A DNA stretch of 64,000 nt from Clostridiales bacterium (GTDB lineage: Bacteria > Bacillota > Clostridia > Oscillospirales > Oscillospiraceae), in NCBI GenBank assembly GCA_029008095.1, contig JAQXJB010000019.1, positions 1 through 64,000 on the forward strand, written 5' to 3'. The notes under the pieces were generated by a model. The model was not told where the DNA came from, searched no databases, and saw only the letters and a list, made by a program, of their open reading frames with translations. Numbering within the stretch: position 1 is the stretch's first letter; every line of letters starts with the position of its first letter. Both the position numbers and the translations under genes were made by a program. Shown one piece after another: positions 15,482 through 32,868 of the stretch.

Positions 15482-15934
15482 ATGTATAAGCAAAACCATC
15501 ACGCGGATAATGATTGTAACTATAAAAACGGGATGCTGCCGGAGTGCGCCCCGCTTGCAGTGCCGTATGTGCCAATGCAGGGGGAGAGCATCCCGCAGTA
15601 TAACCCCAAGGAGGCTCTGACTCGGGGTACATTATTCCCGGGTCTGGACCTGCCCTGGAAAAACGTTGTCAATCAGACCGGCGCACCGGATACGCCTCTG
15701 GGGGAACTGATGGCGCTTGGATTTGTGATTCATGAGCTGGGACTGTATCTTGATACCCACTGCGATGACACTGAGGCTCTGGAAATGTTCAACCGCTATG
15801 TCGAGCTGTATGAAGAAGGCGAGAAACGCTATGTGGCCAGGTATGGCCCCTTAAGGCAGATGCAGGCCGGCGGAGAAAGCTATACCTGGCTATGCTCGCC
15901 GTGGCCCTGGGAGTATGGGGGAGGGATGAAATAA
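15482..15934 (+). CDS. cotJA-cotJB: Fused spore coat protein CotJA-CotJB
   Basis: A 150-residue protein that joins two normally separate spore coat proteins. Residues ~20-65 match CotJA (AVPYVPMQ, then ALTRGTLFPGLDLPW). Residues ~78-150 match CotJB (ELGLYLDTHCDDTEALEMF, KRYVARYGPL, and a terminal WLCSPWPWE). The linker is only a few residues. CotJ proteins are made in the mother cell under sigma-E and load the CotJC catalase-like protein into the coat. ATG 15482 follows GGAGG by 7 bases. The stop overlaps the cotJC start (TAATG), so the genes are translationally coupled. Confidence 0.88.
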   Translation: MYKQNHHADNDCNYKNGMLPECAPLAVPYVPMQGESIPQYNPKEALTRGTLFPGLDLPWKNVVNQTGAPDTPLGELMALGFVIHELGLYLDTHCDDTEALEMFNRYVELYEEGEKRYVARYGPLRQMQAGGESYTWLCSPWPWEYGGGMK

Positions 15935-16635
15935 TGTTTGTATATGAAAAGACTCTGCAGTATCCGGTAAAGATAACCAATACCAATCCCAAACTGGCTG
16001 CAATTATAGTCAGTCAATATGGCGGTCCAGATGGCGAACTCGGCGCGTCCCTGCGTTATCTGAGTCAGCGCTATTCAATGCCCTTCGACGAGCTCAAGGG
16101 GCTTCTGACCGATATCGGTACGGAAGAACTCAGTCACCTTGAGATGGTTGGCACCATAGTACACCAACTCACGCGCAATCTTACCGAATCCCAGATAAAG
16201 ACAGCCGGCTTCGATGCTTATTTCGTGGATCATACCGCCGGAGTATATCCCACCGCAGCCTCCGGCTTCCCCTGGAGCGCCGCCAGCATGGCGGTAAAAG
16301 GCGACCTGATAGCCGACCTTACCGAGGATATGGCGGCAGAGCAGAAGGCGCGCGTGACCTATGATAACATCCTGCGCCTTTCCGACGACCCGGATGTAAA
16401 TAATGTTATCCGCTACCTGCGTGAACGTGAGATAGTACATTTTCAGCGCTTCGGCGAAGCGAAGCGTACAAGATGGAAAAAGAAAAACAGAGCTGCTGAC
16501 AACATGATACAGCCACGAGTCATTGTAAAAAATGGCTCGTGGCTGTTTTCGTTTTTGGGTTATCACATTTTACAGATTGAGAGGAAACTTAGCTTGCTTG
16601 TGGCAGTCTTTTTATACGATTTGGGTACAAAGTAG
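15934..16635 (+). CDS. cotJC: Spore coat protein CotJC (manganese-catalase-like), 5' part interrupted by a mobile element
   Basis: Residues 1-175 are CotJC, beginning MFVYEKTLQYPVKITN. The dimanganese ligands typical of the family are visible in EELSHLEMV, AAEQKARV and REREIVHF. At codon 175 (16456-16458) normal homology stops inside an 11-bp core at 16447-16457. The remaining ~59 codons (KRTRWKKK onward) are read from the mobile element and run through a terminator hairpin, so they are not a genuine CotJC end. The true 3' end lies at 32796-32868. Joining the two copies of the core gives an in-frame 198-residue protein, a normal length for CotJC. Whether the truncated protein works is unknown; it keeps the metal ligands but lacks the last ~24 residues. 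Confidence 0.93.
   Translation: MFVYEKTLQYPVKITNTNPKLAAIIVSQYGGPDGELGASLRYLSQRYSMPFDELKGLLTDIGTEELSHLEMVGTIVHQLTRNLTESQIKTAGFDAYFVDHTAGVYPTAASGFPWSAASMAVKGDLIADLTEDMAAEQKARVTYDNILRLSDDPDVNNVIRYLREREIVHFQRFGEAKRTRWKKKNRAADNMIQPRVIVKNGSWLFSFLGYHILQIERKLSLLVAVFLYDLGTK
16447..16457 (+). repeat. attL core of the cotJC element
   Basis: CGCTTCGGCGA is shared as a direct repeat with 32785-32795. Its last two bases, GA (16456-16457), are the centre of the inverted repeat formed when the element ends are joined, so they are the predicted crossover dinucleotide. On the element side the 18-bp arm CGAAGCGTACAAGATGGA starts at 16460. Confidence 0.9.
16509..16557 (+). terminator. Terminator just inside the left end of the cotJC element
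   Basis: ACAGCCACGAG (16509-16519) pairs with CTCGTGGCTGT (16536-16546), with an inner CATT/AATG stem and a following TTTTCGTTTTT. It would stop cotJ transcription from entering the element. Confidence 0.85.
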
Positions 16636-16646
16636 CTCCTGCCTTG

Positions 16647-16946
16647 CTATAGGTATTTTTGAATTGCTTTTTTGAATTCTTCAATCGCTTCTGTATCGCC
16701 CTCTTCAACAGCGTGAGCAATGCAGTGCGAGATATGCTCATTGATAATTTCTTTGCCTAACCCATTCAAAGCCGATCTTGTGGCCGAAATCTGCATCAGG
16801 ACAGCGGCGCAGTCTTCGTCTCCCTCGATCATCTTTTTGATATATTCAAGGTGACCTATGACACGGGAAAGGCGGTTGATCTGCCGCCTTTTTTCTTTGG
16901 GATCATGGACATGGCTGTGGTTATGATGATACTCCGATTGCCCCAT
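16647..16946 (-). CDS. CsoR/RcnR-family metal-sensing repressor
   Basis: A 99-residue DUF156-type regulator. A His-rich N-terminus (YHHNHSHVHD) precedes the all-helical domain beginning KEKRRQINRLSRVIGHLEYI. Putative metal ligands follow the Cys-His-Cys pattern of copper-type CsoR: Cys in GDEDCAAV, then His and Cys in EHISHC (H-x3-C). Such proteins bind G/C-tract operators and release DNA when they bind Cu(I) or related metals. Two matching sites lie at 17455-17464 and 17505-17514. The His-rich arm leaves Ni or Co open. ATG 16946 follows AAGGAG; the longer frame to 16970 has no ribosome-binding site. Confidence 0.85.
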   Translation of the reverse strand: MGQSEYHHNHSHVHDPKEKRRQINRLSRVIGHLEYIKKMIEGDEDCAAVLMQISATRSALNGLGKEIINEHISHCIAHAVEEGDTEAIEEFKKAIQKYL

Positions 16947-16981
16947 ATCAAACCGCTCCTTTCTCCACAATTTTACTTCAT

Positions 16982-17299
16982 TTATTCAAGGCAAGCAAGC
17001 ACTTCCTGCAATTCTACGTTTGCCGCTTCAAATGTCCCAATGGCGGTTAGCAATTTCTTTTGTGCATTCTTAGGGAGTGAATCAATCAGTGCTGCCAATT
17101 CTTCCGCGTGATGTTCGTTGTGGTGAAGCATATAGGAAAGCAAGGCTTTTGTTTCTTTCAAGTTAGTTGTGCTTTCAGAATGCGTATGGGCTTCCTCGTG
17201 TGTGTGAGGATGTGTATGCACATGACCGTCTCCATGAGAATGCGAATGCTCATGGACATGGTCATCACTGTGGCTGTGCTCATCGTGAATATGTTCCAT
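16982..17299 (-). CDS. Histidine-rich small protein, putative metal-binding
   Basis: A 105-residue soluble protein. Residues 1-45 are extremely His-rich (EHIHDEHSHSDDHVHEHSHS and following HTHPHTHEEAHTHS). The C-terminal half is a helical segment containing LLSYMLHHNEHHAEELAALI. It has no signal peptide or membrane span, so it probably buffers or hands over a metal in the cytoplasm. It lies 35 bases upstream of the CsoR-type gene in the same operon. ATG 17299 follows AAGGAG. The metal is not determinable. Confidence 0.75.
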   Translation of the reverse strand: MEHIHDEHSHSDDHVHEHSHSHGDGHVHTHPHTHEEAHTHSESTTNLKETKALLSYMLHHNEHHAEELAALIDSLPKNAQKKLLTAIGTFEAANVELQEVLACLE

Positions 17300-17323
17300 A
17301 GTAACAGCTCCTTGTCTGGATTT

Positions 17324-17365
17324 GCAAAAGAGGTAACACAACCCCCATTGTGCTACCTCTTTTGC
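17324..17365 (-). promoter_or_regulatory. Leader inverted repeat of the metal operon
   Basis: A perfect 12-bp inverted repeat, GCAAAAGAGGTA (17324-17335) with TACCTCTTTTGC (17354-17365), lies in the leader of the His-rich gene. No T-run follows on the minus strand, so an operator or mRNA leader hairpin is more likely than a terminator. Confidence 0.5.
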
Positions 17366-17449
17366 GAAAAAAAGAAGAACGGTGTAAAGGAATGAAAAAT
17401 GGGATTGCTTAATCACGAGTTTAGAATAGCATAACGAAATCCGGGAAAG

Positions 17450-17519
17450 AAGCTCCCCTGGGGGTTAATTTTTTAAGAATACAAGCAATTATTTTTAGAA
17501 TTATCCCCCTGGGGAGCTT
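17450..17519. promoter_or_regulatory. Paired CsoR-type operators in a divergent promoter region
   Basis: Two 20-bp arms (17450-17469 and 17500-17519) are inverted copies with two mismatches. Each contains a G/C-tract core, CCCCTGGGGG (17455-17464) and CCCCCTGGGG (17505-17514), like known CsoR/RcnR sites. The 30-bp AT-rich spacer could hold promoters for both directions. Confidence 0.7.
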
Positions 17520-17601
17520 GTTCGCTGGCAAAAAACAAAGTAAATTATCCACAGGCATTCCTCATGAACAACCGTGCGCCGTACTGGAAAGGAGTCGCTT
17601 C

Positions 17602-18045
17602 ATGCATACAAAAGGCTTTAATCCGTGGAAAAATATGGACGAGTTTAATCCAAAACAGTTTGCTGACAAAAGCAGTGAACTGGTGCAGTGGCCAATCAAG
17701 CTTTGGAAGGCTCCCATTGTATCGCCGTATTACCATCATGCCCATTTGCTGGTTGCGGCTGATTGCAGTGCCTTTGCATATCTGGGATTCCATGATATGT
17801 ATGCCAAGGGCAAGGTCACCTTGATCTGCTGCATGGAAACGGACTTTGATGTTATGAGCAAACTCAGTCAAATTCTTCTGCATAACACAATCAAGAGTGT
17901 AACTGTAGTGAAAACTGACAAAGAGTGTTGCGGGGATTTAACATTGGCGGTTATGCAGGCAGTAAAGTCCAGTCGACTTCCTGTCCCGGTGCAGGTATCC
18001 ACAATATTTATTGATGCCGAAGATGTGTCGGAAGATGCGGAGTGA
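17602..18045 (+). CDS. Conserved protein resembling the C-terminal domain of clostridial 4Fe-4S double-cluster proteins
   Basis: A 147-residue cytoplasmic protein. The pattern PIVSPYYHHAHLLVAADCSA, LICCMETD and KSVTVVKTDKECCGDL resembles, from memory, the region following the ferredoxin domain in clostridial iron-sulfur proteins. Here it stands alone, with no CxxCxxCxxxC ferredoxin motif. Cys in AADC, LICC and ECCG could still bind a metal or cluster. It is divergent from the CsoR operon and shares its operator region, so it may respond to the same metal. ATG 17602 follows AAAGGAG; the longer frame from 17518 starts inside the operator. Confidence 0.65.
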   Translation: MHTKGFNPWKNMDEFNPKQFADKSSELVQWPIKLWKAPIVSPYYHHAHLLVAADCSAFAYLGFHDMYAKGKVTLICCMETDFDVMSKLSQILLHNTIKSVTVVKTDKECCGDLTLAVMQAVKSSRLPVPVQVSTIFIDAEDVSEDAE

Positions 18046-18148
18046 TTTTGTGAAAATTGCCATGAAATAATATCCCCCGCCCCCGCTTCAATGACACACG
18101 CAAAGCTGTTATACTAAATGCAAATGAATGCGAAAAGGAGGAAGTTCT

Positions 18149-18298
18149 GTGGGAGAAAAAGAACTGAGCAAGAATACAGAAAAAGAAGAAAAATTGCTCC
18201 AACTAATTCGCGAGCTAAAATTCGGCGAGATCCACATTTATGTTGCTGATGGTCAGCCAGTACGCGCAGAAGAAATCAAAAGAAGCGTGAAGTTTTAA
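18149..18298 (+). CDS. YezD-like DUF2292 small protein
   Basis: A 49-residue protein starting at GTG 18149 after AAAGGAGGAAGTTCT. The core LLQLIRELKFGEIHIYV followed by DGQPVRAEE is the DUF2292/YezD pattern. Its function is unknown; relatives often lie beside metal- or sulfur-related genes. It precedes the uptake operon. Confidence 0.75.
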   Translation: MGEKELSKNTEKEEKLLQLIRELKFGEIHIYVADGQPVRAEEIKRSVKF

Positions 18299-18328
18299 TC
18301 GAATATCGTAAGTACCGACTGAACAACA

Positions 18329-18379
18329 GCAGGTCATATATCCACACACGATAGGTGGAGTATGAGCCTGCATTTTTTT
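18329..18379 (+). terminator. Attenuator-like terminator with an internal stem
   Basis: GCAGGTCATA (18329-18338) pairs with TATGAGCCTGC (18361-18371), with a bulge and an inner CCAC/GTGG stem, followed by ATTTTTTT. It separates the YezD-like gene from the methyltransferase and could attenuate the operon. Confidence 0.7.
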
Positions 18380-18420
18380 ATTCCAAAATGCAACATTAGA
18401 AATTTAAAGGAGACAAAAAA

Positions 18421-19230
18421 GTGGACCTTGCATATATCGAGAAACAGTGGGTCAACAACATGAATGTTGACATAGCATCGAGCATAAGTGCTTGGGACAG
18501 TGTAGCAGAGGATTATGTATATGATGATACTGTTCGTTTAGAGAGTAATCCTTTTCTGCTTTATTTGCAGGAGAAAGTGCCTTTATCAAAGAGCATGACG
18601 GTGCTTGATGTGGGCTGTGGTGCCGGAGCTTACTCCATAGCGCTTGCCGAAAAAGTACAAAAAGCAGTAGGGGTGGACTATTCGCCTAAAATGATTGAAG
18701 CGGCAGAAAGAACCTCTGCGCAGCTTGGGGTCACAAATGCAACATTTATGGTGCGGGATTGGTATGACTGCAGAGATCATAGCTTTGACGGAAAATTCGA
18801 TTTGGTTTTCGCCCATACAACACCTGCAATCGCCGATTATGGAACCTTTGTAAAGATGATCCATGCAACCAAATGGTTTGGTCTGCTGTGCAAACCGGCT
18901 CGTAGAACAGATGAGGTCTTTGACCAAATTCGGCAGATTGCGGGAATCAAAACAAAGAGTGACGATGCGTCTGTGGCATTTGCGTTTGATACATTGTGGG
19001 GGCATGGCTTTGATCCGGAGATTTCTTATCAAGAGACTGTCTGGAAATCCTCGAAAACCATTGCAGAAGCAGAAAAGTGGTATTTAGGCAGACTGAAAGG
19101 CTCCAATCAGCTTGATGAAAAGACCGAAAAGAACATTAAGGAATTTTTGCAGAATATCAGCAAAGATGGCATCGTGGAAGAAACAACTTGTACTACGCTT
19201 GTCAACCTGTTTTGGGAGGTGCCGCAATGA
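18421..19230 (+). CDS. SAM-dependent class I methyltransferase
   Basis: A 269-residue soluble protein with a Rossmann-type methyltransferase domain. Motif I is VLDVGCGAGAYS (residues ~61-72), the acidic end of beta-2 is VGVDYSPKMI, and motif IV lies around FDLVFAHTTPAI. The substrate is unknown. It begins an operon with a flavodoxin, an ABC importer and an FmdE-like protein, so it may modify a metal chelator, a corrinoid or an imported compound. Start is GTG 18421 after AAAGGAG; the stop overlaps the flavodoxin start (ATGA). Confidence 0.82.
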   Translation: MDLAYIEKQWVNNMNVDIASSISAWDSVAEDYVYDDTVRLESNPFLLYLQEKVPLSKSMTVLDVGCGAGAYSIALAEKVQKAVGVDYSPKMIEAAERTSAQLGVTNATFMVRDWYDCRDHSFDGKFDLVFAHTTPAIADYGTFVKMIHATKWFGLLCKPARRTDEVFDQIRQIAGIKTKSDDASVAFAFDTLWGHGFDPEISYQETVWKSSKTIAEAEKWYLGRLKGSNQLDEKTEKNIKEFLQNISKDGIVEETTCTTLVNLFWEVPQ

Positions 19231-19727
19231 AGATCAGTATTATCATTTACAGCGAAACGGGAAACACCGAGACTGCAGCCGGATATATCGCAGCAGGTGC
19301 GACCGGCGTGCCGGATACCGAAGTGAAATGCTTCAATATTAAAGATGAAGAAAATTGGGATGTAGATTTTATCAGGGAAAGTAAAGCGGTAGTCTTCGGC
19401 ACCCCTACATACTACGCTAATATGTGCTGGCAGATGAAGAAATGGTTCGATACCCGTGGGGCACAGTATGGATTCGGCGGGAAGATCGGTTCTGCGTTTG
19501 CAACGGAGAACAGTCCTAACGGCGGTGGTGCGGAATTGGCTATCATGACCATTTATAACCATCTGCTCGTCTACGGTATGCTGGTTTATTCCTCCGGAAT
19601 TGATTACGGCAGACCTCCGATACACATCGGCCCAACTCTCGTACGGGAGAGAATGAGCGAGCACGAAGCTAACTGTCGCCTTTTCGGTCAGCGAATTGCG
19701 ACAAAGATACACGAATTATTTGCATAA
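19227..19727 (+). CDS. Flavodoxin-family protein
   Basis: A 166-residue FMN protein. The phosphate-binding loop SETGNTETAA is at residues 9-18, followed by the flavin loops GTPTYYANMCWQMKKW and ATENSPNGGG. It probably delivers electrons for reductive metal release or for an enzyme in the same operon. It is coupled to the methyltransferase by an ATGA overlap. An iron-box-like palindrome follows the stop, before the ABC genes. Confidence 0.85.
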   Translation: MKISIIIYSETGNTETAAGYIAAGATGVPDTEVKCFNIKDEENWDVDFIRESKAVVFGTPTYYANMCWQMKKWFDTRGAQYGFGGKIGSAFATENSPNGGGAELAIMTIYNHLLVYGMLVYSSGIDYGRPPIHIGPTLVRERMSEHEANCRLFGQRIATKIHELFA

Positions 19728-19734
19728 CAGGACA

Positions 19735-19753
19735 AATTTAGGTTCACCTAATT
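19735..19753 (+). promoter_or_regulatory. DtxR/IdeR-like operator (iron box)
   Basis: The palindrome AATTTAGGTTCACCTAATT matches the TTAGGnnnnCCTAA form of DtxR-family sites. It lies ~35 bases before the solute-binding protein start and suggests iron-dependent repression of the ABC importer. Confidence 0.7.
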
Positions 19754-19786
19754 AAGTCATAAAACCAAAACAGAAAGGAAATTACC

Positions 19787-20953
19787 ATGAAAAAACTGAT
19801 TGCACTGCTGCTGGCTATGACCATGCTGTTTGCTATGGCGGCTTGCGGCGCAAAAACCGAAACTCCTGTTCAGATCTCCAAGGAACCTACTTCTTCCGGA
19901 CAGTCTTCTGAAAACAAGGAGCCTTCAAATACCGATGAACCCACAACCCGTATCGTAACAGATGCATTGGGTCGTGAAGTTGAGATTCCCGCTAAGGTAG
20001 AAACCATCGTTCCCCTTGGCAATACCCCCAGAATGATCTCTTATCTTGGACTGGCAGATATGGCTGTTGGTATCGAGGAATGCGAAATCGCATCCAGCCC
20101 CATTCAGGCGTATGCTTATCCTCACGCAGAAAAATGGAGCACATTGCCCAACTGCGGCACCAATTCCATGGGTGAGACTGCTTATTACCCCGAGCAGATT
20201 ATGATTGCTAATCCTGATGTTATTCTTACTACCGACAACTCTGATGTTGCGGATAATCTGCAGACACAAACCGGTATCCCCGTTGTATGCGTGTATCAGG
20301 GCACTCTTTTCGGAGATGATTACGATCAGTCCCTGCGTATTCTCGCAGACGTATGCGGCGTTAGTGACAGAGCTGAAGCTCTTATCAAGTTCATCGATGA
20401 TAGTTTGATCGACCTGGCAGAACGCGCAGCTACCGTGTCTGATGAAGGCAAGCCCACTGTTCTGGGTGCTGGAGCAACCTTCAAGGGCAGCCACAGCATC
20501 GATGGTGTTTACACGAATTACTCTGTCTTTGAAGTTCTTGCAGCCAATGACGTAGCCGAAGAAATCGCCGGTCAGGGTGGATCCAGCGGTGTAATGGTCG
20601 ATCGCGAACAGATTTTGACATGGGATCCCGAAATTATTTTCTTTGATTCCGGCAGCATGGGCCTTATTAACACCGATTACGCGGATAATCCCGCTTACTT
20701 TGAGCAGCTTCAGGCAGTTCAGAACGGCAACCTCTATCAGTGGCCCAACTCTACCTGGCATTGGTCTAATGTTGAGATTCCTCTGGTCAGTGCATATTAC
20801 GTTGGCACTCTGCTCTATCCCGATGCTTTTGCGGATGTTGATTTTGAAGCAAAGGCAAGCGAGATTTTTGAGATGTTCCTCGGCGAACCCGACTATCTCA
20901 ACGTTTTGAAGGATGCCGGTGCCGGATACGGCAAGGTCACTCTTGGAGAATAA
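19787..20953 (+). CDS. ABC transporter substrate-binding lipoprotein, FecB/BtuF-type
   Basis: A 388-residue lipoprotein. The signal peptide ends in the lipobox AMAAC (Cys20), followed by a Ser/Thr/Glu linker. The receptor domain begins TRIVTDALGREVEIPAKVETIVPLG, typical of helical-backbone metal, siderophore and corrinoid receptors, and includes the hinge region AYYPEQIMIANPDVILTT. It would bind a metal complex outside the membrane and pass it to the permease encoded 3 bases downstream. The iron box upstream favours an iron chelate; a corrinoid or other metal complex is possible. Confidence 0.88.
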   Translation: MKKLIALLLAMTMLFAMAACGAKTETPVQISKEPTSSGQSSENKEPSNTDEPTTRIVTDALGREVEIPAKVETIVPLGNTPRMISYLGLADMAVGIEECEIASSPIQAYAYPHAEKWSTLPNCGTNSMGETAYYPEQIMIANPDVILTTDNSDVADNLQTQTGIPVVCVYQGTLFGDDYDQSLRILADVCGVSDRAEALIKFIDDSLIDLAERAATVSDEGKPTVLGAGATFKGSHSIDGVYTNYSVFEVLAANDVAEEIAGQGGSSGVMVDREQILTWDPEIIFFDSGSMGLINTDYADNPAYFEQLQAVQNGNLYQWPNSTWHWSNVEIPLVSAYYVGTLLYPDAFADVDFEAKASEIFEMFLGEPDYLNVLKDAGAGYGKVTLGE

Positions 20954-20956
20954 CTC

Positions 20957-22039
20957 GTGAAAAAGGATAAGAACAACGGCGGATTGCAGGTATACAACCA
21001 ATACCTGCGCCGCAAAAGACTTGCCCTTATTATTGTGGCAGTTATAACTCTTGCGGCTGCACTGTACTCTATCGGAGTGGGTTCCATTCAGATATCCTTA
21101 CTCGATATCTTTAAGGTCTTGGGCGGCGGTGGTGAAAAAATGTACCGCACGGCCATTATGAACATACGCTTGCCGAGAGCAGTCACTGCGATCCTTGTTG
21201 GTGCTGCACTGGCGGCAGCCGGTGCGGTAATGCAATGTGTACTGCGTAACCCGCTGGCATCCGCGTCCTCATTGGGTGTTTCTCAGGGAGCGGCGTTCGG
21301 AGCGGCTCTTGGAATAGTAGTTTTCGGAGGCGGCGTGGTCAACTCAGCTAATGCAACCACAGCGATTACTATCAACAATCCTTACATCGTCACCCTGTGT
21401 GCCTTTGTGTTCGGAATGATTTCTACCGTTGTGGTGGTTGGTATTTCTCAGTTCAAGAAAAATATCGGACCCAGCGGACTGATCCTTGCAGGTACTGCAC
21501 TCAGCTCGCTGTTCAGCGGCGCAAGTACCATTCTTCAGTACTTCGCAGACGATACAAAGCTGGGAGCTATCGTATTTTGGACGTTTGGTAATCTTGGAAG
21601 CACAAACTGGCGTGAACTCTTGATCCTGTTTGCTGTGTTTTTGCTATCCGGTATCTATTTCATGTTTAATCGCTGGAATTATAACGCAATGGAGAGCGGT
21701 GCCGATACCGCAAAGAGTCTTGGTGTAAACACTCGCTCTGTAATGCTGGTCAGCATGGGAATTTGCTCTTTGTTGGCTGCGGTTGCTGTATCTTTTGTAG
21801 GCATTATCAGCTTTGTGGGACTGGTTGCGCCCCACATCATGCGCAGATTTGTGGGTAATGATTATCGCTACTTGATTCCCGGTTCTGCAATTGCCGGTGC
21901 AGTGCTGCTCGTCTTGGCTGACCTCGTCAGCAGAACCGTTATGGCACCTGTCATTCTTCCCATCGGAGCACTTACATCCTTCCTTGGCGCACCCATGTTC
22001 TTGTTCCTGCTGTTCAAGGGGGTGAAGCATAATGGTTGA
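20957..22039 (+). CDS. FecCD-type ABC transporter permease
   Basis: A 360-residue permease with about ten membrane segments. It has the FecCD signatures RLPRAVTAILVGAALAAAGAVMQ near residue 75, NPLASASSLGVSQGA, and the conserved C-terminal FVGLVAPHIMRRFVG, part of the ATPase-coupling region. It imports the ligand of the preceding lipoprotein. Start is annotated at 20957 (GTG), 3 bases after the lipoprotein stop. The stop overlaps the ATPase gene by 8 bases. Confidence 0.9.
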   Translation: MKKDKNNGGLQVYNQYLRRKRLALIIVAVITLAAALYSIGVGSIQISLLDIFKVLGGGGEKMYRTAIMNIRLPRAVTAILVGAALAAAGAVMQCVLRNPLASASSLGVSQGAAFGAALGIVVFGGGVVNSANATTAITINNPYIVTLCAFVFGMISTVVVVGISQFKKNIGPSGLILAGTALSSLFSGASTILQYFADDTKLGAIVFWTFGNLGSTNWRELLILFAVFLLSGIYFMFNRWNYNAMESGADTAKSLGVNTRSVMLVSMGICSLLAAVAVSFVGIISFVGLVAPHIMRRFVGNDYRYLIPGSAIAGAVLLVLADLVSRTVMAPVILPIGALTSFLGAPMFLFLLFKGVKHNG

Positions 22040-22817: not shown

Positions 22818-22819
22818 TT

Positions 22820-23565: not shown

Positions 23566-23847
23566 ATGAACGAACTGCTGAAAGCACTATACGACAGCTT
23601 CTATGAAAATCTTCCCGCAATGCAGCTCAAAGCCGAGATCGAGCACTGCCATCAGAAACTCATCGAAAAACTGGACAAACCAGAGAGAAAACTGGTTTTG
23701 CAGATCATTGACTGCAAAGACCAAATTGCTGAGGATCTGTCTATCGACAGCTTTATCGCCGGTTTCCGAGTGGCAATGCGACTGAACCAAGAACTAAATA
23801 TCTACGAAAAAGGGCACCCTCTTCCAACGAGCGATTTCGTTGAATAG
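23566..23847 (+). CDS. Small mobile-element protein, DUF6809-like
   Basis: A 93-residue, largely helical, acidic protein (LLKALYDSFYENLPAM, then DCKDQIAEDLSIDSFIAGFRVAMRL). Similar small proteins are frequent in Firmicutes integrative elements, and the DUF6809 assignment is from memory of that pattern. Its function is unknown. ATG follows GGGAGGCGAAGCAC. The end of the gene lies in a bidirectional terminator shared with the convergent gene. Confidence 0.65.
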   Translation: MNELLKALYDSFYENLPAMQLKAEIEHCHQKLIEKLDKPERKLVLQIIDCKDQIAEDLSIDSFIAGFRVAMRLNQELNIYEKGHPLPTSDFVE

Positions 23848-27700: not shown

Positions 27701-27772
27701 ATCCTGCTCTCTGCCATAGGCCATGATCGCTCTCGCGGATAGTTCATAGATCCTGTATTTTGTCTGCGGCAT
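24725..27772 (-). CDS. Single-subunit RNA-polymerase-like protein (QDE-1/RDR/YonO-type double-psi barrel, DxDGD motif)
   Basis: A 1015-residue protein. Residues 585-589 (26006-26020) read DYDGD within ERLGGADYDGDMIKTI, the metal-binding signature of double-psi-barrel RNA polymerases. About 50 residues earlier is LRNPHIARNEE, followed by a beta-rich segment ending TDVVMVDANM. That order (RNP-H/L, hydrophobic strand, G-x-DxDGD) is as in eukaryotic RNA-dependent RNA polymerases and their bacterial relatives. The three Asp are intact. It could transcribe element DNA or copy RNA; neither is shown. No phage genes are near. ATG 27772 follows GGGAGGTGGTACG; the frame to 27787 starts inside that ribosome-binding site. 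It shares an 11-base overlap with the unknown gene downstream. Confidence 0.78.
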   Translation of the reverse strand: MPQTKYRIYELSARAIMAYGREQDGVYAFKLDRTATEKCKAASASHEQDGNALFFQAMCELHGNAYQEPDDEQTIPDLADVIFYMNFERVFDRGSSARQLERQKKAEAMFRPEGVTLDFGDGAHRYRAFERSGSMSRNARLSFIRADLYERVRQRIMLDMKIGACQLSKLYAYNGLMLSGGVRVDGIGIDAPHRVIVVDNPEVTEYNVNVITVTDDGSDNIPRKYRREEKRMDVKVIRFDGEGLISKQYAKTVDKAYCGKHIHTSFQIRMPYVKGMLHQVDFHDFFEMTGTETIIDIFGVEHRIVDVDIILTKSMFKGYGWLRENDMSWEDYWSAFRKYHHALYITNVSKEKPERTTELNYQFLNTVSIRAEEFRPADLPDGWDHSPEEDSRRWLTKETELAYYNFCASEQHRLAHFTDELLRKDINKKSREYRMAKVLSKNPLFIHEPVFTKELTAKADEVLKQYSIGRLLVEGDNRFLSGDLLEFMVLLLPPDANRNRKEIAFYANAMTNHFQSNSFYAPGAAYELGDTCTLLRNPHIARNEEIQLSVYAKKDQMRKYYLGHLTDVVMVDANMLAAERLGGADYDGDMIKTITDPILNECVKRNYELDSLENNFNIPLLMIPSAEPRIRDANDWYACFETVRDTFSSRVGQICNAALDRSIIAYNENSDAEERQRCREETEALAILTGLEIDSAKSGVKPDLTEYLGRRTVKRTSFLQYKKLVEDAEERRAWYEPTHREKLKAFLEKTDWSAVDSNVERLPYIADRLKKNTPKIKPKPALDSELFKFAVQENWKNTLDMDILLSVRELLQDYEACLSRIRACRAPVRDRQKEIDINRILFARGQEEAYDADELYALFRQLAPERLTALRQAIQNEQWQLMDIAAREAFMLKYLPEPELMDWYDLLTDFRSGGYRILGDLVCDIDDENTQQERKRLIRETDSEDFTAMMTAYIGKAFSDDYKKAVSKKCRELMDRIIKPAAAVPYVVALGKRNLLWDLLIDQIEKHVLEVRHAE

Positions 27773-27866
27773 CGTACCACCTCCCATTTTTATTCTGACA
27801 GAAGCGCTGTCCTATAATCTGTACAACATCAGCATATCACAAAACCTCTGAAATGCAATATGAATA

Positions 27867-27905
27867 CTGGCCCCACTTTTTTAGCGGGGCCAGTTTCTAT
27901 TTTCA
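27867..27905 (+). terminator. Hairpin in the leader of the RepA-like gene
   Basis: CTGGCCCC (27867-27874) pairs with GGGGCCAG (27886-27893), followed by TTTCTATTTT. It lies upstream of the start codon, so it may terminate or attenuate the replication and mobilization transcript. Confidence 0.6.
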
Positions 27906-27922
27906 TTCAGGAGGTACACAAC

Positions 27923-28984
27923 ATGTACAAAACCAACATTCATCCCCTCAACACCATCGACGGTGAAACTCTGATGAGCATCCCTATGGAGCCGCTAAAC
28001 TTCGTGGTGGACTCACTCATCTCCCAAGGCCTGCACATCCTCGCAGGCGCACCGAAAGTGGGAAAATCCTGGCTGGCACTTTGGCTGGCTACAACCATCG
28101 CCAAAGGCGAACCCGTCTGGAATCTGCAGACGAAGCAAGGCACCACACTCTACCTCTGCCTGGAAGATTCCACTCGCCGTATCCAGAACCGACTCTTCAG
28201 CATCACGGACGAGGTTCCGTCCAATGTTCGTTTCTGTACGGAGAGCAACATTCTGGAGAAAGGTCTGGAACAGCAACTCACCCAGTTCCTCAAAGAGTAT
28301 CCTGACACGGTGCTGATCATTATTGACACACTGCAGAAAGTGCGCGGTGTGAAAAATGATAACGCCTATGCCAATGACTACCGCGACCTATCTCTGCTCA
28401 AGCGTATTGCGGATCAGCACGGCACTGCCATCCTGCTCATTCATCACCTGCGCAAGGAAGGTGACGAAGATGTGTTCAACCGCATCTCCGGTACCACTGC
28501 TATCAGCGGTGCGGTGGATTCCAGCTTCACACTGGTGGAGGATAAGCGCGGCAGTGGACGCGCGAAGCTCTCATGCATCGGTCGTGATATTGAATACCGT
28601 GAGATAGAGCTGGAGCGAAATGAGGATAACGTGTGGCAGCTCATCAGCGACAGCAAGGTCACGCCCGGCGGAAGTATCCCTGCTGCCATCTCTGCATTCA
28701 TGTCGAAGCGCACTGAGTATATCGGCACTCCGACTGAGTTCGCAGAAGAGATCGACCCTGACGGAACGCTGGGAATCACGCCGAAGAAAGCGGCGCGGCT
28801 GATATCGGAAAGCCTTGCGGTTCTAAGGCAAACCGGCATTACAGTTGTTCTCCGCCGAAGCAACGGAAAGCGCATCATTGAGCTGCACCGTGCCGAAAGT
28901 GTCGACACCTCGAGGACTGACCCTATCGACCCTTGTGAGGCCACAGGAGGCGATTTGTCGGCAGTTTCTGCCGCTGCCGAGTAA
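27923..28984 (+). CDS. RepA-like AAA/RecA-fold ATPase (replicative helicase type)
   Basis: A 353-residue cytoplasmic ATPase. Walker A is GAPKVGKSW (residues ~42-50), Walker B is VLIIIDTLQKV, and the downstream LLIHHLRKEGDED resembles the RSF1010 RepA/DnaB-like motif region. The C-terminal part is a charged domain possibly binding DNA. Such helicases go with mobilizable plasmids and integrative elements and support replication of the excised circle. ATG 27923 follows CAGGAGGTACACAAC; upstream in-frame residues come from the hairpin region. It begins the replication and mobilization block. Confidence 0.82.
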   Translation: MYKTNIHPLNTIDGETLMSIPMEPLNFVVDSLISQGLHILAGAPKVGKSWLALWLATTIAKGEPVWNLQTKQGTTLYLCLEDSTRRIQNRLFSITDEVPSNVRFCTESNILEKGLEQQLTQFLKEYPDTVLIIIDTLQKVRGVKNDNAYANDYRDLSLLKRIADQHGTAILLIHHLRKEGDEDVFNRISGTTAISGAVDSSFTLVEDKRGSGRAKLSCIGRDIEYREIELERNEDNVWQLISDSKVTPGGSIPAAISAFMSKRTEYIGTPTEFAEEIDPDGTLGITPKKAARLISESLAVLRQTGITVVLRRSNGKRIIELHRAESVDTSRTDPIDPCEATGGDLSAVSAAAE

Positions 28985-29183
28985 ACACGCCACCATGGAG
29001 AGAGCGGCGACGTTTCGCCAGTGTCGGAGAAACAGCGGAGATCTATCGCAGAAGGAAAAATCACCTCCCTTGGAGGTGGCCAGCATCGCGTTTGTCTGGT
29101 CTGCGGCAATGCCGCTGCCCGCCTTCCGCACATATTCCGGGCAGAAGCCCGGACCCACTTTATCTACATTTTGGAGGAAAAAT

Positions 29184-29498
29184 ATGAAAAAGAAAGATAT
29201 CAAGTTCAGCACCCGCATGGCCAGTGAAGATCGAGAAACGATCAAAGAACTGGCAAAACAGTCTCACATGTCCATGAGTAACTATGTCACCGCCTGCTGT
29301 CTGGGACAACAGATCATTATCATCGAAGGTCTGAAGGAAGTGCTGAAAGAACTCAAGGCCATCGGCAACAACCTCAACCAGTTGGTGACGCTGGCGCACA
29401 TGGGCAAAGTCACGGTCATCAATCTCAGTGAGGTGCGGCAGCTCCTCGCTGACATCCGTACTGCCGTCCGTGAGATCGCGGAACGAAAGCGGTGGTGA
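29184..29498 (+). CDS. mobC: MobC-like relaxosome accessory protein
   Basis: A 104-residue protein. The N-terminal half is ribbon-helix-helix-like (IKFSTRMASEDRETIKELAK). The C-terminal half carries the MobC signature IGNNLNQLVTLAHMGKV. MobC proteins bind the transfer origin and help the relaxase open the DNA. ATG 29184 follows TTGGAGGAAAAAT. It lies directly before the relaxase gene. The transfer origin is expected in 28985-29183 but was not identified. Confidence 0.88.
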   Translation: MKKKDIKFSTRMASEDRETIKELAKQSHMSMSNYVTACCLGQQIIIIEGLKEVLKELKAIGNNLNQLVTLAHMGKVTVINLSEVRQLLADIRTAVREIAERKRW

Positions 29499-29500
29499 CC

Positions 29501-30910
29501 ATGGCAATCGTAAGTTTCACAAATTACAAACGAGGTCAGACTTGCGGTGGCATGGGTGCGGTGCTGCGATACACAGCACAGGACTGGAAGACGGAGTATG
29601 ATGGTCGGCAGTTGGTAACAGGGATCAACTGCCAGCCGGAAACAGTCTACGGCGATTTTATGCTAACAAAACAGCTGTACCATAAAACGGACGGTACGAT
29701 GTTCTACCACATGGTGCAGAGCTTCCCAAAGGGCGCCGATGTCGATCCCGCGGTTGCACATGCGGCGGCGCAAAAGCTGGCTGAGTATTTCAGTGGTCAT
29801 GAAGTTCTGGTGTGTACGCACACAGACCGTGAGCACATCCACTCTCACTTCATCATCAACTCCGTCAGCTTCGAGACAGGAAAGAAACTGCACATCGCAA
29901 AAGATCAACTGCAGGAACTGCGCCAGCGCAACGATGAAGTGTGTATGCAATTCTCGCTCCCGCTCTTTGTACCGAATCCCAACCGACAGAAATCCAAACA
30001 CATGACCATGGGCGAATACAAAATTGCTGCCCGTGGTCAGAGCAAGAAGCTGCAGCTCATGAATATCATCAATGACTGCATGCGTCATGCATCCAACCGT
30101 GATGAGTTCATCGCTCTGATGGAAAGCGAAGGCTATAAAGTTCGCTGGGAGAAGTCCCGGCAAAACATCACCTACACCACACCGAGCGGCTGGCAGTGTC
30201 GTGACCGCCTGCTGTTCGGTGATAAATATCTGAAGGAAAGGATGGAACGTGAATTTGAAATCAGAGCAGAACTTCTCTATGGACGAGCTCATGGCGAAGA
30301 ATCTTCCTCCGCATATGAGGAAGACCGAGCCGAAGCAGTCCGTGCAGGAACCGGAAGCAACTCCGGCTCCGATACAACAGTCCACACCGCAGCCCATCGT
30401 GATCCAGTGCGCGATGCCGGAAGCGATGGAACTGATAGTGCGCAGACTAAAAACACTGGAGGAGCAAGGCGGTTGGCAGAGGGAGTACCTCCGCAGACTG
30501 TGCGAGAGGTCGACAGCATATGCGACACAGGCGCAGATGGACGAACTGCTGAAGGTGGTGAAGCATCTGGCGGAGATGACCGAACAGGCTGGGAAACCGA
30601 AAGAGAAATCTTCTTTGCGGCGCAGAATCAGACTGCCCAGGTTGCACCTGTCGTTTCCGGAATGGGACTGGCCGACAGTGGTTACGGTAGTGATGGCGCT
30701 GGCTATGGCAGCGTTGCTTCTGCTCTGGTTCAAGTCGGGCGGCGACTGGAGCAGTCTCAGTCTGCTGAACCGGTGATTGACAGCACCACGCAGCACCACC
30801 ACACTGACAGCAAAAGGCTCCGTAAGGAGAAACAAAAGAAAATCGCCCTCGGTCACAAAGCAGATGACCATGAGGACGAACAAACCCAAACCTGGCAGCA
30901 GACCATGTAA
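29501..30910 (+). CDS. mobA: MOB-family relaxase (MobA-like)
   Basis: A 469-residue relaxase. The N-terminal domain (~1-260) begins MAIVSFTNYKRGQTCGGMGAV, with Tyr residues available for nicking (QDWKTEYDG), and contains the metal-binding triad REHIHSHFIIN near residue 110, typical of MOBP/MOBV-type relaxases. The C-terminal ~220 residues are of low complexity (Gly, Ser, Asp, Glu, Thr) and overlap another gene in a different frame. It nicks the element's origin and leads the strand in transfer using a co-resident conjugation system. ATG 29501 is preferred; GTG 29492 is alternative. Confidence 0.88.
   Translation: MAIVSFTNYKRGQTCGGMGAVLRYTAQDWKTEYDGRQLVTGINCQPETVYGDFMLTKQLYHKTDGTMFYHMVQSFPKGADVDPAVAHAAAQKLAEYFSGHEVLVCTHTDREHIHSHFIINSVSFETGKKLHIAKDQLQELRQRNDEVCMQFSLPLFVPNPNRQKSKHMTMGEYKIAARGQSKKLQLMNIINDCMRHASNRDEFIALMESEGYKVRWEKSRQNITYTTPSGWQCRDRLLFGDKYLKERMEREFEIRAELLYGRAHGEESSSAYEEDRAEAVRAGTGSNSGSDTTVHTAAHRDPVRDAGSDGTDSAQTKNTGGARRLAEGVPPQTVREVDSICDTGADGRTAEGGEASGGDDRTGWETEREIFFAAQNQTAQVAPVVSGMGLADSGYGSDGAGYGSVASALVQVGRRLEQSQSAEPVIDSTTQHHHTDSKRLRKEKQKKIALGHKADDHEDEQTQTWQQTM
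30249..30776 (+). CDS. MobB-like membrane protein encoded inside the relaxase gene
   Basis: A 175-residue protein in a second reading frame, wholly within the relaxase 3' half. It has a soluble N-terminus with a Pro/Gln-rich part (PAPIQQSTPQPIV), a coiled-coil-like stretch (AMELIVRRLKTLEEQGG onward), and a C-terminal membrane span TVVTVVMALAMAALLLLWF (~residues 143-161). GTG 30249 follows AAGGAAAGGATGGAAC. Its composition looks more protein-like than the low-complexity relaxase tail, so it is probably real. RSF1010 has the same nesting of mobB in mobA, where MobB steadies the relaxase and links it to the membrane; that role is inferred here. Confidence 0.72.
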   Translation: MNLKSEQNFSMDELMAKNLPPHMRKTEPKQSVQEPEATPAPIQQSTPQPIVIQCAMPEAMELIVRRLKTLEEQGGWQREYLRRLCERSTAYATQAQMDELLKVVKHLAEMTEQAGKPKEKSSLRRRIRLPRLHLSFPEWDWPTVVTVVMALAMAALLLLWFKSGGDWSSLSLLNR

Positions 30911-30917
30911 CAAACCA

Positions 30918-30952
30918 CGGGAGAGTCGACACAGTTCGGCTCTCCCGCTTTG
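30918..30952 (+). terminator. Terminator after the mobilization genes
   Basis: CGGGAGAG (30918-30925) pairs with CTCTCCCG (30940-30947), followed by CTTT. Confidence 0.6.
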
Positions 30953-31014
30953 CATAGGACAAGTTTATCAAAAATACAATGTACTGAACGTACCACACCT
31001 TGGAGGTGATATCT

Positions 31015-31224
31015 ATTATTATCCGCCCCTTCACTTATGATAGTGACGCGCATATTGTTTCCGGCAGAAAAGGCACAATCACCATTGAAAACCTCTCCCC
31101 TCAGTTTTCTGATGAGGAACGCATTGAACAGCGGCGATGCATCGAGGAAGGGCTGTTTGAGGTTTTTATTAAATATACAAATCAACATGAAAGTAATAGC
31201 TATTTAGGAGCTGCTGCGGTATGA
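31015..31224 (+). CDS. Small unknown protein upstream of the recombinase (start uncertain)
   Basis: The frame reads IIRPFTYDSDAHIVSGRKGT and onward to KYTNQHESNSYLGAAAV. A strong TTGGAGGTGAT at 31000-31010 is followed not by ATG but by ATT ATT ATC, so translation may begin at an unusual ATT at 31015 or at GTG 31006. The ~70-residue product is charged and has no recognised domain. Its position just before the large serine recombinase, as for the small ORF in the skin-like element, makes it a candidate recombination directionality factor (inference). Confidence 0.55.
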   Translation: MIIRPFTYDSDAHIVSGRKGTITIENLSPQFSDEERIEQRRCIEEGLFEVFIKYTNQHESNSYLGAAAV

Positions 31225-31248: not shown

Positions 31249-31267
31249 ATGTGAAAGGAGCTACCGA

Positions 31268-32761
31268 ATGAACGCAATCTACACAAGACAATCCGTTGAC
31301 AGAGCCGACAGTATTTCTATCGAAAGTCAGATCGAGTTCTGCAAATATGAGATGCGAGGTGAAGCCTACAAAGTATATACCGACAGAGGCTACAGCGGTA
31401 AGAATACAGACCGCCCCGCCTTTGCCGAAATGATGAATGACATTGAAAACGGAATCATCAGCAAAGTTGTCGTCTATAAGCTGGATCGTATCAGCCGTTC
31501 AATTCTGGACTTCTCAACCATGATGGAACGATTCGAGAAATACAAGGTCGAGTTCGTATCAACGACTGAGAAGTTCGATACCTCTTCACCGATGGGCCGA
31601 GCCATGCTCAATATCTGCATTGTCTTTGCTCAGCTGGAACGTGAAACCATTCAGAAGCGTGTCACAGACGCTTACTTTTCACGCAGCCAAAAGAGCTTCT
31701 ATATGGGTGGCAGAGTTCCGTATGGATTCCGATTGGTGCCTACAACCATCGAAGGTGTCAAAACATCAATGTACGAAATCAACCCTGACGAAGCTGAACA
31801 GGTCAGGCTGATCTACGAACTCTACTCAAAACCCGAATGTTCATACGGCGATATCATCCGATATTTTCAGGAGCATGGCATCTTGAAGAACGGCAAACCG
31901 TGGGGCCGCACTCGGCTGGCAGATGTTCTCAGAAACCCTATCTATGTACGTGCCGACCTTTCGGTCTATGAATTCTATCGTGACCAGGGTGCGATCATGG
32001 CAAATGAGCCGAGCGATTTCATTGGGACAAACGGCTGCTATTATTACAAGGGTCAGGATGCCACAGGTCGAAAGCAGATGAATCTGGAGGGAAACCATCT
32101 GGTGCTGGCACCTCACGAAGGCATCATCCCTTCTGACTTATGGTTGAAGTGTCGCGCAAAATGTCTGGAGGCTCAGCAGATCAAACCTTACCAGAAAGCT
32201 AAGAACACATGGTTGGCAGGAAAAATCAAATGTGGTGTTTGTGGCTACGCCTTGGTAGACAAACATTACCCGACCAGACGCTCCAGATACTTTCTCTGCT
32301 CTAACAAGATGAATTCCAGAGCCTGCGAAGGTCCCGGCACGATCTACTCGGATGAATTTGAACAGCTGATCTACAACGAGATGCTCAAGAAACTGGCGCA
32401 GTTCAAGGCACTAAGGAAGCGTAAAGGGAATATCCTTAACCCTGAATTAACCACGCTGAACGTACAGCTCGCACAGGTTGAAGATGAAATCTCGTCACTG
32501 ATGAATCGCATGGCCAGCGCCGATGATGTCCTCTTCCGTTACATCGGCGAACGGGTGCGTGAATTGGATGGCAAGAAGCAGGAACTAATGAAGCGCATCT
32601 CCGAGTTGAAGCTTCATAAGGAAGCTGACTATACAGAGATCAGCAACCACCTGACCATGTGGGAGGAACTGAGCTTCGATGACAAACGCCAGACCGTTGA
32701 CCAGCTCATCAGAGTCATCTACGCAACCAGTGATTCCATTAAAATCGAATGGAGAATCTAA
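31268..32761 (+). CDS. Large serine recombinase (integrase/excisionase of the cotJC element)
   Basis: A 497-residue site-specific recombinase. The resolvase-type catalytic domain (~1-145) has the nucleophile Ser9 in IYTRQSVDR and the arginines of VVYKLDRISRS. The recombinase domain (~155-260) contains VPYGFRLVP. A zinc ribbon (CGVCGYAL...FLCSNKMNSRAC, ~320-355) and a coiled coil (~385-450) complete the large-serine-integrase layout. The stop is 23 bases from the attR core at 32785, the usual integrase-att arrangement. It reads in the same direction as cotJC. It is predicted to integrate the element at cotJC and, with a directionality factor, excise it. Confidence 0.95.
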   Translation: MNAIYTRQSVDRADSISIESQIEFCKYEMRGEAYKVYTDRGYSGKNTDRPAFAEMMNDIENGIISKVVVYKLDRISRSILDFSTMMERFEKYKVEFVSTTEKFDTSSPMGRAMLNICIVFAQLERETIQKRVTDAYFSRSQKSFYMGGRVPYGFRLVPTTIEGVKTSMYEINPDEAEQVRLIYELYSKPECSYGDIIRYFQEHGILKNGKPWGRTRLADVLRNPIYVRADLSVYEFYRDQGAIMANEPSDFIGTNGCYYYKGQDATGRKQMNLEGNHLVLAPHEGIIPSDLWLKCRAKCLEAQQIKPYQKAKNTWLAGKIKCGVCGYALVDKHYPTRRSRYFLCSNKMNSRACEGPGTIYSDEFEQLIYNEMLKKLAQFKALRKRKGNILNPELTTLNVQLAQVEDEISSLMNRMASADDVLFRYIGERVRELDGKKQELMKRISELKLHKEADYTEISNHLTMWEELSFDDKRQTVDQLIRVIYATSDSIKIEWRI

Positions 32762-32784
32762 GGGAAATTTATGTCCATCTTGTA

Positions 32785-32795
32785 CGCTTCGGCGA
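32785..32795 (+). repeat. attR core of the cotJC element
   Basis: The second copy of CGCTTCGGCGA. On the element side the 18-bp arm TCCATCTTGTACGCTTCG spans 32774-32791. The chromosome resumes at 32796 with GGGGCTAAG. Confidence 0.9.
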
Positions 32796-32868
32796 GGGGC
32801 TAAGATTGGCCACGGAAAAACTGAATCAGAAGAACGTGTATGTGATCAACCCGTCCTTTGACAGATAA
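32785..32868 (+). pseudogene. cotJC: cotJC 3' fragment (displaced C-terminal codons)
   Basis: From the core the frame reads RFGEGLRLATEKLNQKNVY followed by VINPSFDR and TAA at 32866-32868. This is the conserved CotJC C-terminus missing from the gene at 15934. Codon phase matches exactly: 171 codons precede the left core and 27 follow from the right core, giving 198 residues. It has no start or ribosome-binding site of its own and can be expressed only after excision of the element. Confidence 0.95.

What the first reader, a model, noticed from the sequence alone, without database searches (positions are those of the whole stretch)
15934..32868. cotJC is split by a 16.3-kb serine-recombinase element that could be excised exactly to restore the gene
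Seen directly: CotJC homology stops at 16457 and resumes in phase at 32785-32868 (RFGEGLRLATEKLNQKNVY, VINPSFDR, stop). An 11-bp direct repeat marks both junctions, and joined coding length is 198 residues. A large serine recombinase ends 23 bases from the right core. By analogy with skin in sigK, this looks like a second gene-intervening element that may be removed in the mother cell, or at least a mobilizable element using a coat gene as its target. I am not aware of a well-described case in cotJC.
Basis: partly seen in the sequence, partly recalled or inferred. Interest (0 to 1): 0.95.

Follow-up and report, generated by a model that had tools for sequence, protein, structure and literature searches.

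The report
Spore-coat gene split by mobile elements
In this bacterium a 16-kb mobile DNA element cuts the spore-coat gene cotJC in two, and the gene is also in pieces in 106 of 400 genomes sampled from its family, mostly broken at one of four recurring spots; the elements likely cut themselves out in the spore's mother cell so that the gene can work there, which is untested.

Summary
cotJC (15934-16457) resumes in phase at 32785. An 11-bp repeat marks both ends, the joined gene is 198 aa, and a same-genus relative has it uninterrupted. The insert looks like an integrative and mobilizable element with relaxase, MobC/NikA, metal-uptake cargo and a large serine recombinase (LSR).

It is not an isolated case. 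Of 400 family genomes, 318 match CotJC. I re-examined 143; 106 have it in two or more pieces, 90 of them at four recurring sites by a strict rule. The sites lie at the four metal-ligand motifs. LSRs lie inside 48 of 49 one-contig junctions. At least five LSR lineages use cotJC. One genus carries a small LSR+deoA element in 6 of 6 species, while joined cotJC keeps omega 0.03. Sporulation-type promoters precede a small ORF before the LSR in part of two lineages and in the window's own skin element, but not clearly in the window's lineage.

So cotJC is a hot spot of gene-intervening elements. Mother-cell excision is likely for some lineages, unproven for this one.

The parts
15482..15934 (+). cotJA-cotJB fusion gene, first gene of the cotJ operon
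   Evidence: Pfam CotJA 1.8e-13 and CotJB 6.8e-24
15934..16457 (+). 5' part of cotJC (Mn catalase, coat protein) up to and including the core
   Evidence: Pfam Mn_catalase 1.8e-52; only such match in the genome
16447..16457 (+). attL core CGCTTCGGCGA
16458..16635 (+). element-encoded replacement tail that the interrupted cotJC frame reads into
   Evidence: the intact relative has the native tail instead
16460..16476 (+). left inner arm CGAAGCGTACAAGATGG, inverted copy of 32775-32791; the joined circle would give a symmetric attP centred on GA (predicted)
   Evidence: sequence
16647..23350 (.). cargo: CsoR-type metal repressor (-), unknown (-), unknown, methyltransferase, flavodoxin, periplasmic binding protein, FecCD permease, ABC ATPase, FmdE-domain protein
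   Evidence: Pfam
23566..23847 (+). DUF6809 protein
   Evidence: Pfam
23860..27787 (-). unknown 297-aa protein and 1020-aa protein with an RdRP-family domain
   Evidence: Pfam PF05183 1.1e-14 for the larger one
27860..28984 (+). AAA_25 ATPase
   Evidence: Pfam
28845..29498 (+). MobC/NikA-type mobilization protein (domain in 29160-29495)
   Evidence: Pfam NikA-like 4.4e-19, MobC 2.9e-8
29492..30910 (+). MobA/VirD2-type relaxase
   Evidence: Pfam Relaxase 3.9e-34
31000..31224 (+). small ORF directly upstream of the LSR; a small ORF of this kind stands, by eye, before 11 of 11 site-D LSRs read; candidate recombination directionality factor (inferred)
   Evidence: no Pfam or NCBIfam match
31268..32761 (+). 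large serine recombinase, 497 aa
   Evidence: Pfam Resolvase, Recombinase, Zn_ribbon_recom
32775..32791 (+). right inner arm CCATCTTGTACGCTTCG
32785..32795 (+). attR core CGCTTCGGCGA
32785..32868 (+). 3' part of cotJC in phase, with native stop
41809..42291 (-). 3' part of sigK, split by the skin element (host context)
   Evidence: sigma profile hit; joined frame
42243..43982 (-). skin LSR (stop-to-stop frame), preceded by a 65-aa ORF with a sporulation-type -10 box (CATATTTTG)
60602..60751 (-). 5' part of sigK

Best explanation
This is a 16.3-kb element, likely integrative and mobilizable, that its own large serine recombinase likely inserted at the HFQRFGE codons of cotJC, and whose excision in the sporulating mother cell would rejoin the gene exactly. 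SHOWN by sequence: the split, the 11-bp cores, the inverted arms, the recombinase, relaxase and MobC/NikA genes; the same gene in two or more pieces in 106 of 143 re-examined family genomes; four recurring break sites; and at least five recombinase lineages at them. SHOWN in part: in one genus a small LSR+deoA element sits in cotJC in all six held species while both exons stay open and strongly conserved, which is hard to explain unless the gene is rejoined and used. INFERRED: excision by LSR plus a small upstream-encoded partner acting as directionality factor; timing by sporulation promoters, seen in front of that partner in part of lineages B1 and C and in the window's skin element; loss of the element only from the doomed mother cell, so the inherited genome keeps it. 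For the window's own lineage (site D) the timing step is the weakest.
For: Exact junctions and an intact 198-aa orthologue. Cores of 9 bp or more in codon register in 14 of 14; an LSR inside 46 of 49 one-contig junctions under the script's rule, plus L132 and L153, whose LSR reading frames overlap the exon edge = 48 of 49. LSR tree: site A one clade 5/5, C one clade 9/9, B two clades of 27 and 5, D 13 rows with LSRs of other or unknown target nested among them. 106 of 143 re-examined genomes split, against 12 of 330 genomes with two matches to spoIVA, a control over the same 400. Of 112 cotJC pieces in the fetched regions 1 has a stop in its interior. One-genus element: 6 of 6 species, LSR+deoA content, deoA single match in 6 of 6 and none in 8 of 8 other genomes, joined frame open in 5 of 5 usable species with omega 0.031 against 0.025-0.034 for 30 intact genes, pairwise dS 0.66-2.6, cotJC, deoA and cotJAB trees compatible. 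Sporulation-type -10, RBS and small ORF before the LSR: C 6 of 9, B1 7 of 27, shuffles 0.04 and 0.12; also the window's skin LSR. Host: sigmaE over cut-off and sigK split by skin. SpoIVA listed for 100 of 106 split genomes (one search read).
Against: No excision product was seen: the attP string is absent from viral contigs. The window's lineage has no clear sporulation promoter (0 of 12); only a post hoc pattern in 5 of 12, four of which are one clade. The promoter arrangement was itself framed after seeing the C elements, and 20 of 27 B1, including all six of the deoA genus, do not show it. Upstream of the LSRs themselves there is no enrichment within 150 bp. The cotJ-derived motif model also scored low at the window's own cotJA (5.0) and before the skin LSR (at most 4.4), so it has little power here. 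The window's insertion is probably recent (LSR 98% identical in another genus), so conservation of its exons says nothing about use. SpoIVA was not found in the window's genome nor in G205 and G249 of its genus. The split set has somewhat higher omega (0.048-0.059) than intact genes. In some searches I count 24 CotJC pieces with one in-frame stop; many are alignment overruns past a junction, but not each was checked, and L157 has a real interior stop. PMC12122855 (passages read) says B. subtilis lacking CotJC in the coat shows no apparent defect, so loss may be cheap. The LSR tree of the deoA genus does not fully agree with the host genes.
Confidence: 0.55

Rival explanations
1. Ordinary mobilizable element that uses very conserved codons of a dispensable coat gene as attachment site. 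cotJC is simply broken or given a new tail, excision is rare and linked to transfer, and sporulation plays no part.
For: Relaxase and MobC/NikA present; LSR 98% and 90% identical in genomes of other genera; L006 shares only 1.8 kb at the recombinase end with the window's element; no clear sporulation promoter in lineage D; site-D codons among the most conserved DNA of the gene, best nearby window rank 3 of 577.
Against: Does not explain the genus-wide element with cotJC exons at omega 0.03 over pairwise dS 0.66-2.6, the sporulation-type promoters in lineages B1 and C, or interior stops in only 1 of 112 fetched pieces.
Confidence: 0.38
2. The truncated CotJC with its element-encoded tail is the working protein: the element replaces the C-terminus and nothing needs to be excised.
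For: The frame stays open for 233 aa and keeps the residues that align with all four ligand motifs.
Against: Replacement tails differ between site-D elements, and insertions at sites A, B and C remove the rest of the enzyme, so it cannot hold for them.
Confidence: 0.05
3. Assembly chimera.
For: The source is a 55-contig draft of 95.8% completeness.
Against: Same site and a 93% identical LSR in G290, a two-contig genome; 98% identical LSR with a cotJC tail in an independent record.
Confidence: 0.02

Closest known systems
skin element in sigK (B. subtilis, C. difficile)
   Same: LSR element inside a mother-cell gene. In C. difficile a 72-aa directionality factor made under sigmaE/SpoIIID control times excision while the LSR is constitutive (PMC5025042, passages read); part of lineages B1 and C here show a like order of parts. 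The window carries its own skin.
   Different: Target is a structural coat enzyme, not a sigma factor; four sites and several lineages in one gene; the window's element looks mobilizable rather than prophage-like.
gin element in gerE (B. cereus)
   Same: Non-prophage gene-intervening element with a serine recombinase and a helper factor GirX, 9-bp core (PMC5595907, passages read).
   Different: 28.6 kb with three recombinases in one host group; excision was shown there and not here.
vfbin (spoVFB), SPbeta (spsM), yin (yabG)
   Same: Elements splitting sporulation genes, named together in PMC10747680 (passages read).
   Different: Described there as prophage-like, one element per gene.
phi027 prophage beside a cotJC-like gene of C. 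difficile
   Same: Integration next to a CotJC homologue (PMC12122855, passages; PMC11222575, passages and part 1 of the discussion).
   Different: The gene lies downstream of attR; the passages read do not describe it as split.
IMEs with serine integrases
   Same: Relaxase, MobC and LSR with no conjugation genes among the 17 element proteins scanned.
   Different: The target is a sporulation gene in which exact excision would restore the product.

Membership tests
sporulation gene-intervening element (skin-like) | in-frame interruption of a sporulation gene, restored exactly by joining short repeats | tested here: met
   intact orthologue in G072
sporulation gene-intervening element (skin-like) | element encodes a site-specific serine recombinase | tested here: met
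sporulation gene-intervening element (skin-like) | LSR or its directionality factor has a sporulation promoter | tested here: inconclusive
   window lineage 0 of 12, post hoc 5 of 12; lineages C 6 of 9 and B1 7 of 27 positive
sporulation gene-intervening element (skin-like) | excision occurs in the mother cell | not testable with these tools
   needs sporulating cultures
integrative and mobilizable element | relaxase and accessory mobilization protein | tested here: met
integrative and mobilizable element | no conjugation pore genes of its own | tested here: met
   none among 17 element proteins scanned with Pfam; not every small ORF was scanned
integrative and mobilizable element | origin of transfer | not tested
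   no oriT search made
skin element proper | inserted in sigK | tested here: not met
   target is cotJC; a separate skin is in the window

The most novel reading that the evidence does not exclude
cotJC is a communal docking gene of the Oscillospiraceae. At least five recombinase lineages have independently settled at its four catalytic motifs, and several run their own sporulation-timed excision, so that some species assemble this enzyme gene from up to three DNA exons anew in every mother cell. One genus has domesticated such an element, housing its only pyrimidine-nucleoside phosphorylase gene inside the coat gene.
Probability: 0.55. Interest if true: 0.9.

Novelty: new variant of a known kind. 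Interest (0 to 1): 0.8.

Why it matters
The intervening elements named in the papers read here sit in sigK, spsM, spoVFB, gerE and yabG. If true, cotJC turns rare curiosities into a recurring evolutionary strategy: a gene needed only in a doomed cell is a harmless home for mobile DNA provided it leaves in time. It offers dozens of natural replicates, separate recombinase lineages at the different sites, a near-minimal two-gene element, and a source of paired LSRs, candidate directionality factors and att sites for genome engineering.

Tried and rejected
Sporulation promoter directly before the LSR: a motif model from 51 cotJA promoters found no enrichment in the 150 bp before the LSRs, and it also scored low at the window's own cotJA and before the skin LSR, so that test has little power. 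Only the arrangement promoter-small ORF-LSR gave signal. That arrangement was framed after the C elements had caught my eye, and L157, of unclear site, also shows it. One search used patterns chosen after looking at the sequences and is exploratory. Its control of 13 other-target LSRs includes L026, which is the site-D LSR of G053 under another id; the same double entry sits in the tree. The others are called other-target because no cotJC piece was found beside them in short flanks; L030, L032 and L033 were not further examined. The SpoIIID box GGACARG is recalled, and C. difficile's published box differs (KRTAACARK).

A first automatic join misplaced several junctions and was replaced. In one search the junctions of L138, L146 and L157 were still mis-sited or unclear, and L176 is a duplicated tail, not a split. 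L134, L138, L140, L141, L156, L157, L172 and L176 were left out of the omega sets. L146 dropped out as too short after the bad join, L155 was added by hand, and L132, L145, L150, L160, L161, L166, L178 and L182 never entered because made no junction for them.

Searching attP in viral contigs gave nothing; Rfam gave nothing. Phage records hold cotJC pieces, several breaking near aa 59-68, without annotation, and were not followed.

Counts: the 143 genomes were picked by me from 318 because they had two or more matches or a weak best hit; three further picks (G361, G387, G392) were dropped to fit the 80-handle limit, and about 16 genomes with two matches but a near-full-length best hit were not re-examined. 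The 318 include genomes matching only by a paralogue. Pieces on different contigs were counted as split without proof of the insert. The piece list was typed by hand, leaving out matches under about 45% identity, taken as paralogues; the list was cut at its end. By strict windows 90 of 106 fit a site; 16 do not, several because an alignment overruns, some (for example G280, G218, G259, G390) unexplained. The 100 of 106 SpoIVA count and the 24 pieces with a stop were read off the tables by eye.
Full report
WHAT IS IN THE WINDOW. A cotJA-cotJB fusion gene (15482-15934) is followed by cotJC, whose catalase homology stops at 16457. The tail resumes in phase at 32785-32868. CGCTTCGGCGA stands at 16447 and 32785; removing the 16,338 bp between gives a 198-aa frame, and genome G072 of the same genus has that gene uninterrupted (95% protein identity; DNA identity 416 of 524 before and 57 of 73 after the junction; dN 0.037, dS saturated). 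The element's inner ends are inverted copies of a 17-bp arm, so the circle would hold a symmetric attP centred on GA (predicted). It is the only Mn-catalase match in the genome.

THE ELEMENT. Right end: LSR (Resolvase, Recombinase and zinc-ribbon domains), small ORF, relaxase, MobC/NikA, AAA_25 ATPase, and on the other strand a 1020-aa protein with an RdRP-family domain. Left end: metal cargo, namely a CsoR-type repressor, binding protein, FecCD permease, ABC ATPase, FmdE protein, flavodoxin and methyltransferase. It is built like an integrative and mobilizable element. LSRs 98% and 90% identical occur in records titled Oscillospiraceae bacterium RGIG3171 and Pseudoflavonifractor phocaeensis An858, in two other genera of the family, each with a cotJC tail right behind the LSR. 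The first of these contigs begins inside the LSR, so nothing more can be compared; the second shares only 1.8 kb at the recombinase end; G290 shares 2.0 kb there at 84% and 7.2 kb of the middle at 71% DNA identity. G290 is in two contigs and has the same split with a 93% identical LSR. The recombination end thus travels between genera.

HOST. It has sigmaE over its cut-off. On the same contig sigK is split by an 18.3-kb skin element. SpoIVA was not found in this draft, nor in G205 and G249 of the same genus, but it was in G072 and G148.

THE GENE IS A HOT SPOT. CotJC was searched in 400 genomes of the family: 318 match, some only by a paralogue. I re-examined 143 chosen for several or weak matches: 106 have the gene in two or more pieces, 8 intact, 22 one partial piece, 7 none. 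Sixteen of the 106 have two junctions. By strict windows 90 of 106 fit: A 27, B 47, C 17, D 12 genomes. The window's own D junction is among the 16 that the rule misses, because its left alignment runs on; some of the others are unexplained. Control: spoIVA gives two matches in 12 of 330 genomes of the same 400. A survey of the order found CotJC in 323 of 394 genomes, 42 of them from the same family, and partial pieces in other families too, for example G681 (27-198) and G566 (1-176); these were not followed.

FOUR SITES, FOUR METAL MOTIFS. The breaks lie at YGGPDGE, GTEELxH, AAEQ and HFQRFGE. In the alignment to L. plantarum Mn catalase (1jku) query E35, E65/H68, E136 and H169 meet chain residues 35, 66/69, 148 and 181. 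A paper's table lists His69 and His181 for 1JKU (PMC11796326, passages); the glutamate numbers are recalled. Sites D, A and B rank high among the conserved DNA of 30 intact genes (best nearby rank 3, 29 and 35 of 577 windows); C less so (131 of 577). Other stretches, such as TYDNILR and the start of the gene, are as conserved and are not known to be hit, so conservation alone does not pick the sites.

RECOMBINASES. From 60 fetched regions plus L005-L009 and the window I found 67 LSR reading frames. Of 49 one-contig junctions 46 hold an LSR under the script's rule; two more, L132 and L153, have an LSR frame overlapping the exon edge; the last, L176, is a duplicated cotJC tail. All 14 shared words of 9 bp or more are in codon register. 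Of the 76 rows of the LSR tree, 59 come from cotJC sites. Site A is one clade (5 rows), C one clade (9), B two clades (27 and 5); D (13) forms one neighbourhood with LSRs of other or unknown target nested in it, 3-4 changes, one of these rows being a double entry. So at least five lineages use this gene. The program warns of long branches, so deep joins, such as the window's skin LSR beside clade B1, are unsure. Orientation is mostly constant within a lineage.

A LINEAGE THAT LOOKS DOMESTICATED. In genus g98 all six held species have cotJC split at site B by a 3.0-3.8-kb insert that holds an LSR and a pyrimidine-nucleoside phosphorylase gene (by Pfam in the L139, L153 and L155 copies, by likeness in the others); L153 also holds a methyladenine glycosylase gene. 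The phosphorylase gives one match in each of the six genomes and none in eight other genomes. Joined cotJC is open in five species, the sixth lacking its first exon in the stretch. Omega is 0.031, with pairwise dS 0.66-2.6; 30 intact genes of the family give 0.025-0.034 and 25 split genes outside g98 0.048-0.059 (two printed estimates each). cotJC, deoA and cotJAB trees are compatible, with weak support in part; the LSR tree differs in the place of G098, and the L155 LSR frame is short (421 codons). The simplest reading is a long-lived split gene that is still used, which needs rejoining. An alternative, repeated re-insertion of closely related elements, is not excluded.

INTACTNESS. Of 112 cotJC pieces in the fetched regions, some of them intact genes, one (L157, an odd case) has a stop in its interior. 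In the tables I count 24 pieces with one stop; many are alignments that run past a junction, but not each was checked.

REGULATION. cotJA promoters of the family carry CATA-N3-TG-type -10 boxes: 54 of 68 against 1.3 expected. Directly before LSRs there is no such enrichment. Many LSRs are preceded by a small ORF of a type proper to the lineage. Before that small ORF, the arrangement -10 box, RBS, start and an open frame occurs in 6 of 9 C elements and 7 of 27 B1 elements (one of the seven frames does not look like the usual small ORF; none of the six g98 elements has it), in the window's skin and in L157, in 0 of 12 D elements, 0 of 5 A and 0 of 5 B2; shuffles give 0.01-0.12. The pattern was framed after the C elements had been seen. 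It resembles the C. difficile skin plan, where a 72-aa directionality factor is made from a sigmaE promoter and the LSR is constitutive (PMC5025042, passages). For the window's lineage a post hoc pattern, GGACAAG followed by AATACAATG, or near variants, occurs in 5 of 12 D and 0 of 13 other LSRs, but four of the five are one clade and one of the 13 is a D row under another id. The host's own cotJ box seems to read AATAGAATA (by eye), so an A at the first position is not disqualifying. This is suggestive only.

CONCLUSION. The element is best described as a likely IME of a cotJC-specific recombinase lineage. The larger find is that cotJC is a multi-site hot spot of gene-intervening elements, several of which likely excise under sporulation control. 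For the window's element itself, sporulation timing is an inference from its kin and its target. No paper found describes a cotJC-intervening element; the closest are the C. difficile phi027 reports.

Noticed in passing
window 41809-60751 (-): sigK is split by an 18.3-kb skin element with its own LSR and an upstream 65-aa ORF that has a sporulation-type -10 box.
   Followed up: partly
window 24725-27787 (-): 1020-aa protein with an RNA-dependent RNA polymerase-family (PF05183) domain inside a mobilizable-looking element.
   Followed up: no
L137, L139, L153-L156 (genus g98): A 3-kb element made of LSR plus a nucleoside phosphorylase gene sits inside cotJC in all six held species; it is the only match to that gene found there.
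   Followed up: yes
L176 (G005): Extra copies of the cotJC 3' tail downstream of an intact 3' exon, as if site-D elements had been added in tandem or carry their own tail.
   Followed up: no
L129 (G053), L141 (G150), L007/L150 (G375): cotJC split by two elements of different recombinase lineages in one genome.
   Followed up: partly
L157 (G390): Odd case: cotJC pieces that overlap and fit no site, with an interior stop and an LSR outside the main clades.
   Followed up: no
phage records MT838203, MT837874, MT839280, MT839049, MT839831: Unannotated records from human stool whose cotJC match starts or stops near aa 59-68, the site-B position.
   Followed up: no
G000: SpoIVA was not found in the window's genome although sigmaE, a split sigK and cotJ are present; missing contig or real loss is undecided.
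   Followed up: partly
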